Assembly: GCA_031257835.1 (NCBI GenBank)
Contig: JAIRNY010000020.1
Span: 78,884-142,883, forward strand
Reading direction: 5' to 3'
Length of the DNA: 64,000 nt
Source: Candidatus Endomicrobiellum cryptotermitis
GTDB lineage: Bacteria; Elusimicrobiota; Endomicrobiia; Endomicrobiales; Endomicrobiaceae
Part shown: positions 61,047 through 62,745 of the stretch, piece after piece
Position numbering within the stretch: the stretch's first letter is position 1
How the letters are laid out: every line of letters starts with the position of its first letter
Translations under genes and position numbers: made by a program
Notes under the pieces: model-generated
The model's database searches: none
What the model saw: only the letters and a program-made list of their open reading frames with translations
Told to the model about the DNA's origin: nothing

Positions 61047-61277
61047 CTAGTTCCATTTTCTTATCGGCCTCATCCCCTCTTCTCTCTTGCTTTCTATATC
61101 AATACCTTTATCTTTTGCGTACTTGATCTCTACCACCACTACACTTTCTTTGCCTTTTATCACTACATCTATCCTTCCTTTGTCAGTATGCACTTCTCCT
61201 TCTACTTCATATTCACTTATACGCGTCGCTAGTAAAAACAATGAATGATAGTAGGATTCTCTCTTTGTGTGCAACAA
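61047..61277 (-). pseudogene. PD-(D/E)XK nuclease-domain fragment of AAA-ATPase-like (DUF1703-type) protein
   Basis: YEVEGEVHTDKGRIDVVIKGKESVVVVEIKYAKDKG; short fragment. Confidence 0.6.
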
Positions 61278-61350: not shown

Positions 61351-61426
61351 GGGCAGTTAGCTCAGGTGGAAGAGCATTTCCCTTACAAGGAAGAGGTCGC
61401 GGGTTCAAACCCTGCACTGCCCACCA
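61351..61426 (+). tRNA. tRNA-Val(UAC), CCA encoded
   Basis: GGGCAGT...ACTGCCCACCA; loop CTTACAA, anticodon TAC. Confidence 0.95.
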
Positions 61427-61739
61427 TAATAAAAATCCAAGTAAGTTCCACAAAATCTACCTTTTGTTTCCAACCAACAAGTTACAAAATCCACTACAAC
61501 CTTTTCGTTTTAATGTTGGTTGTTTCACTTGCTTTTATGATTTTAGTTGCTATCGCCAAAATCAGCTTTGAATTTAGCAATCAATTTTTTTGCCAATCGA
61601 AAGTTAATTTTAATCTGCCTAAGAAAAACTTCATTACTTTTGGCTTATAACAAAATTTCAAACCGCCAATCATTTTGCGATTTTCAAACAACCAATGAAC
61701 TCTGTCCACAACAAATGACAGTTATGACATTGTAAACAC

Positions 61740-62283
61740 ACAGTGTGGCACTGCTAAACGCAATAATTCCATATTTGCCAAAAGGATTATTGCCACTTGG
61801 ATTAAAACCCTCTAGCAGCAAAAACTCCTCAACTTTACCACCTTTATCCAAAACGTGAGCTCGTGCTGTAGTGAAATGATGGTCCATTAGGACTGTAGAC
61901 CCTGTTGGGCTAAAACATTTTGTGATGTTTTCACAAGCACGCCCTTGATGTGCCCGCAAGAAAAACTTCATACCAAACACCTCTTGAATCGCCTTTTCTA
62001 AACGATAAAATGTGGTCGAACCTGCATAACTATCATCTGATTGCATCATAACTGCTTGTTACATATTTGCTCATCGCATTTACACCACTATCAGTGAACA
62101 TATCCAAAAAGTATTGGTCGTTGCGAAGCAAGAAAGTGTTGTTTCCTGCTTCGTTAATGGCTTTTAACCTATCAGCTAGTAGGATTAAGTTGAGCTTTTG
62201 CACAATTCTAACTTTGTGCATTTCTATTTGTGCATTTCTAATGGAATTTCCTTTCCGCTAAAGAACTTGATTTTGTCTGACAC
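61740..62283 (-). pseudogene. Tryptophanase / tyrosine phenol-lyase family, frameshifted and truncated
   Basis: MSDKIKFFSGKEIPLEMHK | VRIVQKLNLI...AINEAGNNTFLLRNDQYFLDMFTDSGVNAMS, MMQSDDSYAGSTTFYRLEKAIQEVFGMKFFLRAHQGRACENI; 14-bp tandem duplication 62213-62240. Confidence 0.87.
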
Positions 62284-62312
62284 AAAAAATGTCCTACTTG
62301 TAAGCAACGGGC

Positions 62313-62608
62313 AGACAAAAAAAACATTTTCTTCTCATGCAAAAAAATGCATGGGAAGAAAATGTTGTAGTTGTATATGAATTTACAAAAATTCTGCGGT
62401 ACCACCCTAATTACAGGCAAAAAAACCTGCCACTTCGGCTCAAACAAACCTAACCCTCTAACGACGGGAGTAACCCCTAACAAACTACTTGCAAAAAGCT
62501 TTCGTTTGCTCCATTCTAGAGTGTATTTACGCAACAGCTTGGCATCTGCTCGCTCCAATCGCAGACTCTTTCAAACACGAAGACTTGTTGCCTTTCTATC
62601 TTTCAATG
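62313..62608 (-). promoter_or_regulatory. T-box riboswitch leader (Tyr UAC specifier inferred)
   Basis: T-box AGGGTGGTACCGCA (62395-62408); terminator ACATTTTCTTCCCATGCA/TGCATGAGAAGAAAATGT + T8 (62313-62366); stem I with GTAAATACAC; -10 TATAAT upstream. Confidence 0.92.
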
Positions 62609-62745
62609 TGTTTATTATATTATACACAATTTAAATAAATTTGCTAAGCTTTTTTTAGATTTCTTTCACGCATTTAATTTCTACGATTAATTCCGGGCTT
62701 ATTATGTTAATTGTTTTTTTAGTTTATTTTTTTTATATTTAACAC

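What the first reader, a model, noticed from the sequence alone, without database searches (positions are those of the whole stretch)
62213..62608. Tyr-specific T-box controlling a tryptophanase/tyrosine phenol-lyase
Complete T-box features lie directly upstream of the lyase GTG (62283): stem I with GTAAATACAC (UAC followed by A), AGGGTGGTACCGCA, and a terminator with T8. A promoter TTAGCA-N17-TATAAT is placed correctly. T-boxes are typical of Firmicutes and rarer elsewhere, and normally serve synthetase, biosynthesis or transport genes. Tyr control of a beta-eliminating lyase would suggest TPL run toward tyrosine synthesis, or horizontal acquisition of the cassette.
Basis: partly seen in the sequence, partly recalled or inferred. 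Interest (0 to 1): 0.75.

Follow-up and report, generated by a model that had tools for sequence, protein, structure and literature searches.

The report
Decayed tyrosine T-box before lyase remnant
A termite-gut Endomicrobium carries the wreck of an acquired gene for a tyrosine phenol-lyase-type enzyme behind an RNA switch that reads uncharged tyrosine tRNA; the same pairing is intact in many gut Clostridia, often in genomes lacking the usual last tyrosine-making enzyme, which suggests that a supposed tyrosine-degrading enzyme is used there to make tyrosine.

Summary
The T-box is real. Rfam's T-box model matches end to end (window 62615-62382, minus strand, E 3e-12, 59 bits, below the gathering score of 93). 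The specifier is UAC (Tyr): 28 of 28 T-boxes found upstream of relatives of this lyase have UAC at the aligned position, whereas the six T-boxes of the same genus, all before trpE, have UGG. The aptamer keeps its pairs through many compensatory changes, but the antiterminator's 3' strand is missing from its usual place, and the lyase is a pseudogene in three pieces with its middle deleted. So the switch now controls nothing intact here. The ~1.28 kb cassette sits at the 3' end of a tRNA-Val gene; four close relatives lack it there and no other genome of the genus searched has this lyase, so it is probably an acquired cassette. Intact relatives carry mostly TPL-type, not tryptophanase-type, specificity residues. 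Genomes with the T-box/lyase pair lack prephenate dehydrogenase (tyrA) far more often than lyase genomes without it (18/28 vs 5/46, p=3e-6), although the tree-corrected test is borderline. No paper in the library searched describes the pairing.

The parts
62619..62647 (-). promoter-like TTAGCA-N17-TATAAT
   Evidence: the -10 context AATTGTGTATAATATAA recurs elsewhere in related genomes
62382..62615 (-). Tyr T-box leader (Rfam RF00230, model 1-219)
   Evidence: E 3e-12, 59.1 bits, below gathering; nhmmer with a profile of lyase-linked T-boxes: 68 bits, E 7e-21
62512..62609 (-). Stem I, with apical AGAG/GCGAUUGG region and specifier loop
62523..62525 (-). specifier codon UAC (Tyr)
   Evidence: aligned position in 28/28 lyase-linked T-boxes
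62396..62408 (-). T-box sequence AGGGUGGUACCGC; UGGU at 62404-62401 matches tRNA-Tyr 3' end ACCA (discriminator A)
62317..62364 (-). intrinsic terminator hairpin plus T8
   Evidence: -20.6 kcal/mol; inverted repeat I1
61608..62283 (-). pseudogene of a TPL-type beta-eliminating lyase; GTG start at 62283; pieces match NF009709 positions 7-64 (62230-62057), 62-157 (62064-61780) and 402-459 (61781-61608)
62213..62240 (-). 14-nt tandem duplication that shifts the lyase frame
   Evidence: D3
61427..62705 (.). lineage-specific insertion holding lyase remnant, T-box and promoter; absent from the same site in four close relatives
61351..61426 (+). tRNA-Val(UAC), left border of the insertion

Best explanation
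This is a decayed copy of a recurrent cassette: a transcriptional T-box specific for tRNA-Tyr placed directly before a TPL-type beta-eliminating lyase gene. In intact copies, uncharged tRNA-Tyr should pair with UAC in stem I and, through its ACCA end, with the UGGU bulge; this stabilises the antiterminator, so the lyase is made when tyrosine is short. The Endomicrobium lineage acquired the cassette at the 3' end of tRNA-Val, probably from another gut bacterium. The gene then broke and the antiterminator degenerated, in a genome that also lacks tyrA and pheA and has a broken aroC. Shown here: T-box identity, specifier by homology, matching tRNA-Tyr, pseudogene, insertion site, recurrence of the pairing. 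Inferred: antitermination, transfer and its donor, lyase reaction, loss of function.
For: Full-length Rfam match. 28 lyase-linked T-boxes, all UAC at the aligned specifier. The window element scores 68 bits with their profile, against 12-21 bits for the genus's own trpE T-boxes. Window aptamer: 42 of 47 consensus pairs kept, with many double compensatory changes; across the family 34 of 63 pairs show compensatory change. tRNA-Tyr GUA with discriminator A in the same genome. Lyase pieces in more than one frame with the middle missing. Empty site in four close relatives; no such lyase in the other 42 genus genomes. Island GC 0.36 and T-box GC 0.42 against 0.31 for the window.
Against: The Rfam score is below the gathering threshold. 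The innermost pair below the specifier loop (G-C in relatives) is U-C here, so a purely positional reading of the loop would be one base off; UAC rests on homology. The antiterminator is weak (-3.9 kcal/mol against -8 to -14.5 in most relatives). The lyase remnant sits on a long branch, so the donor is not resolved. Other Endomicrobiaceae carry related lyases without a detectable T-box, so vertical descent with many losses is not fully excluded.
Confidence: 0.86

Rival explanations
1. The element is a Trp T-box, or a copy of the genus's own trpE T-box placed before a tryptophanase, with UGG or another codon as specifier.
For: The genus has Trp T-boxes before trpE; NF009709 is labelled 'tryptophanase'; an AUGG occurs downstream in the leader.
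Against: In the alignment UAC, not UGG, occupies the specifier position; the trpE T-boxes score only 12-21 bits with the lyase T-box profile against 68 for the window; specificity residues of intact relatives are mostly TPL-type.
Confidence: 0.03
2. The cassette was inherited vertically in Endomicrobiaceae and lost from every other sampled member of the genus, rather than acquired.
For: Related lyases occur in other Endomicrobiaceae and elsewhere in the phylum; the nearest are 50-74% identical to the window pieces.
Against: None of those examined has a detectable T-box (upstream contig truncated in one); 42 other genus genomes lack the lyase; the site is empty in the closest relatives; best identity to the remnant is a Clostridiales copy that bears the T-box (67%).
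Confidence: 0.12
3. The switch is still functional and drives an RNA or short peptide; the lyase loss is incidental.
For: Promoter and terminator look intact; the aptamer keeps most pairs.
Against: No intact gene follows on that strand before tRNA-Val, which runs the other way; the antiterminator is weak; an intrinsic terminator blocks read-through.
Confidence: 0.07
4. In intact copies the lyase is catabolic or has another substrate, and the Tyr T-box only signals general starvation. (This concerns the intact relatives and can be true together with the best explanation of the window.)
For: TPL is known as a degrading enzyme (established knowledge); 10 of 28 T-box genomes keep tyrA; the family differs from enteric TPL at the Met288 position (Phe here) and in the segment corresponding to TPL DATRCVEN (DASLLxDN here).
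Against: T-boxes switch genes on when the cognate amino acid is short, so destroying tyrosine at that moment makes little sense; tyrA absence tracks the T-box (18/28 vs 5/46).
Confidence: 0.4

Closest known systems
T-box riboswitch (Rfam RF00230), Tyr-specific transcriptional type as before tyrS or tyrosine biosynthesis genes (e.g. the Bacillus cereus group, PMC2494555)
   Same: Stem I with specifier loop, AGGGUGGUACCGC, terminator with T-run, UAC specifier
   Different: Downstream gene is a TPL-type beta-eliminating lyase; in the window the gene is dead and the antiterminator is degenerate
Tyrosine phenol-lyase (EC 4.1.99.2), Citrobacter freundii type
   Same: An intact relative scores best with TPL structures (410-423 bits against 284-320 for tryptophanases); relatives keep Thr124, Met379 and Arg381
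   Different: About 42% identical to plasmid-borne TPLs; Met288 position is Phe; placed under a starvation-responsive T-box, whereas enteric tpl is induced by tyrosine through TyrR (from memory)
Trp T-box before trpE in the same genus (L002-L007)
   Same: Same riboswitch class, same genus
   Different: UGG specifier, different stem I insert, intact biosynthetic target

Membership tests
T-box riboswitch (RF00230) | Covariance-model match over the whole element | tested here: met
   E 3e-12 over model 1-219, though 59 bits is below gathering 93
T-box riboswitch (RF00230) | Specifier codon in stem I matching a tRNA of the host | tested here: met
   UAC; tRNA-Tyr GUA present
T-box riboswitch (RF00230) | UGGN bulge complementary to the tRNA 3' end | tested here: met
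   UGGU against ACCA; discriminator A in L155
T-box riboswitch (RF00230) | Antiterminator (A1/A2) mutually exclusive with terminator | tested here: inconclusive
   Terminator -20.6 kcal/mol; canonical antiterminator strand absent, best alternative -3.9 kcal/mol
T-box riboswitch (RF00230) | Response to uncharged tRNA | not testable with these tools
   needs binding or transcription assay
Tyrosine phenol-lyase | Thr124, Met288, Met379, Arg381, Phe448 in place of TIL Asp137, Phe304, Val394, Ile396, His463 (PMC5805759) | tested here: inconclusive
   In intact relatives Thr124 in nearly all, and Met379 and Arg381 (MERG) in most by pattern search; the Met288 position is Phe; Phe448 judged from the alignment. 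In the window HFTTA keeps the Thr124 position; the 381 region is deleted
Tyrosine phenol-lyase | Tyrosine-phenol interconversion | not testable with these tools
   needs enzyme assay
Tryptophanase (TnaA/TIL) | Asp137 (FDTT) and Val394/Ile396 | tested here: not met
   FTTT and MERG in nearly all intact relatives

The most novel reading that the evidence does not exclude
A Tyr T-box/TPL cassette spread among gut and anaerobic bacteria is a genuine, phenol-dependent tyrosine biosynthesis route that replaces prephenate dehydrogenase: made on tyrosine starvation, it condenses phenol, pyruvate and ammonia to tyrosine. The Endomicrobium copy is a failed acquisition of that route.
Probability: 0.45. 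Interest if true: 0.8.

Novelty: new variant of a known kind. Interest (0 to 1): 0.58.

Why it matters
TPL is treated as a catabolic or industrial enzyme. Consistent placement under a switch that turns on when tyrosine runs out, and enrichment in genomes without tyrA, would mean that some anaerobes obtain tyrosine from environmental phenol, with consequences for predicting auxotrophy and cross-feeding in guts. It also suggests that T-box cassettes move between phyla, and shows T-boxes (native Trp, acquired Tyr) in a genus for which the searched literature reports none.

Tried and rejected
Rfam at gathering threshold misses the T-box. Looked for T-boxes upstream of lyases elsewhere in the phylum: none found. 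Looked for att-like repeats at the tRNA-Val insertion: none. The leader hairpin as a genus repeat: only short low-complexity matches. A first T-box tally by motif (19 loci) missed nine; the profile search raised it to 28, and with more genomes the tyrA test went from p=0.012 to p=3e-6. The tree-corrected test stays borderline (median p 0.0625), so co-occurrence is not treated as proof. pheA absence does not track the T-box significantly; aroC only weakly (8/28 vs 4/46, p=0.047). A search for Tyr-rich leader peptides gave 5 loci against 2.1 expected from shuffles, of which only three look real. Paper searches for T-box with TPL, tryptophanase or beta-eliminating lyase found nothing relevant.

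Full report
Setting. The window is part of a 1.05 Mb, 28-contig genome (87% complete). Close relatives of the lyase in the same family are named Candidatus Endomicrobium labiotermitis and Ca. Endomicrobium neocapritermitis, so the genome belongs to Endomicrobium-like Elusimicrobiota (inference); 42 further genomes of its genus could be searched.

The element. On the minus strand the Rfam T-box model matches 62615-62382 over its whole length (E 3e-12), but at 59 bits, below the gathering score of 93, and it is not reported at gathering level. It is the only T-box in this genome at E <= 0.001.

Specifier. Six other genomes of the genus carry T-boxes scoring 77-85 bits, all before trpE, with AAA-UGG-A at the specifier. 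The window has AAA-UAC-A. Among 80 lyase relatives fetched from named genomes, 18 have a T-box over gathering directly upstream; a motif hit and a profile search bring this to 28. At the aligned position 28 of 28 read UAC. They occur in termite-gut and anaerobic Clostridia, a Spirochaetaceae genome (L122), an Acholeplasmataceae genome (L120), Halanaerobium (L140), Acidaminobacter (L141) and Caloramator (L116). The window genome's tRNA-Tyr has anticodon GUA and discriminator A, matching the UGGU bulge.

State of the switch. Against the consensus structure of 13 lyase-linked T-boxes the window keeps 42 of 47 comparable pairs, with many double changes that keep pairing; a second alignment gives compensatory change in 34 of 63 pairs. 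So the aptamer was long under selection, probably in the donor lineage. The antiterminator is different: the UCGUCCCU strand is absent from its place, and the best constrained alternative is -3.9 kcal/mol against -8 to -14.5 for most relatives, while the terminator is -20.6. The pair below the specifier loop is U-C. The switch is probably locked off or dead (inference).

The gene. Three fragments match family NF009709 at positions 7-64, 62-157 and 402-459; the middle is deleted and a 14-nt duplication shifts the frame. An intact relative matches TPL structures better than tryptophanases. Of the five residues that distinguish the two activities (PMC5805759), a pattern search finds Thr124 in nearly all relatives and Met379 and Arg381 in most; the Met288 position is Phe as in tryptophanase, and Phe448 was judged from the alignment only. 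The segment corresponding to TPL DATRCVEN reads DASLLxDN. The enzyme is therefore TPL-type but not proven TPL.

Acquisition. In four close relatives tRNA-Val lies 7 to about 220 bp from the ABC-F gene; in the window about 1.28 kb (61427-62705) intervenes. No other genus genome has the lyase, and the island is richer in GC than the window. No flanking repeat was found. The donor is not resolved: the remnant is on a long branch near a clade rich in T-box-bearing termite-gut bacteria, with best identity 67% to L072, a Clostridiales genome with the T-box. The host genome has no tyrA or pheA hit and a broken aroC, so it has probably lost tyrosine synthesis in any case, though it is only 87% complete.

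Why a Tyr T-box before a TPL. T-boxes turn genes on when the amino acid is short (established knowledge). Among 74 lyase genomes with enough upstream sequence, tyrA (PF02153) is missing in 18 of 28 with the T-box and 5 of 46 without (p=3e-6); where chorismate synthase is present the counts are 10/20 and 4/42 (p=8e-4); chorismate synthase itself tracks only weakly (p=0.047 uncorrected, no trend on the tree). Pairs of relatives on the tree go the same way 6.2 times and the other way 0.6 (median p 0.0625). Most of these genomes are incomplete MAGs and tyrA calls rest on one Pfam model, so this is suggestive. It fits use of the lyase for tyrosine synthesis from phenol. In three loci a short reading frame beginning MDPYYY, MDPDYYY or MDDDYYYY stands between leader and lyase, a possible second tyrosine sensor.

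Verdict. The local copy is a fossil; the interest lies in the recurrent intact cassette it led to.

Noticed in passing
L002, L003, L004, L005, L006, L007: Trp (UGG) T-boxes directly upstream of trpE in six genomes of this genus; no paper in the library joins T-box and Endomicrobium.
   Followed up: partly
L116, L135, L105 (about 84-144 nt before the lyase match): Short reading frames with runs of Tyr codons (MDPYYYSKKK..., MDPDYYYRHLK..., MDDDYYYYLNKK...) between the T-box and the lyase: possible leader peptides giving a second tyrosine sensor.
   Followed up: partly
G000:C27:29595-30655 (L172): Chorismate synthase of the window's genome is in three pieces with stops; tyrA and pheA not found.
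   Followed up: partly
window 61047-61277, minus: Fragment of a PDDEXK_9 nuclease-like protein beside tRNA-Val, probably another remnant.
   Followed up: no
L132 260-2091, minus: A tyrA-like and a DAHP synthase-like reading frame (by eye) lie close to a T-box/lyase pair, on the other strand.
   Followed up: no
L067 (G090, 1,643,562 bp single contig): Lyase without T-box in a genome with no tyrA or aroC hit; the size suggests Elusimicrobium minutum (from memory).
   Followed up: partly
L008, L009, L010: Weak T-box-like matches (24-27 bits) in G026, G037 and G028, not examined.
   Followed up: no
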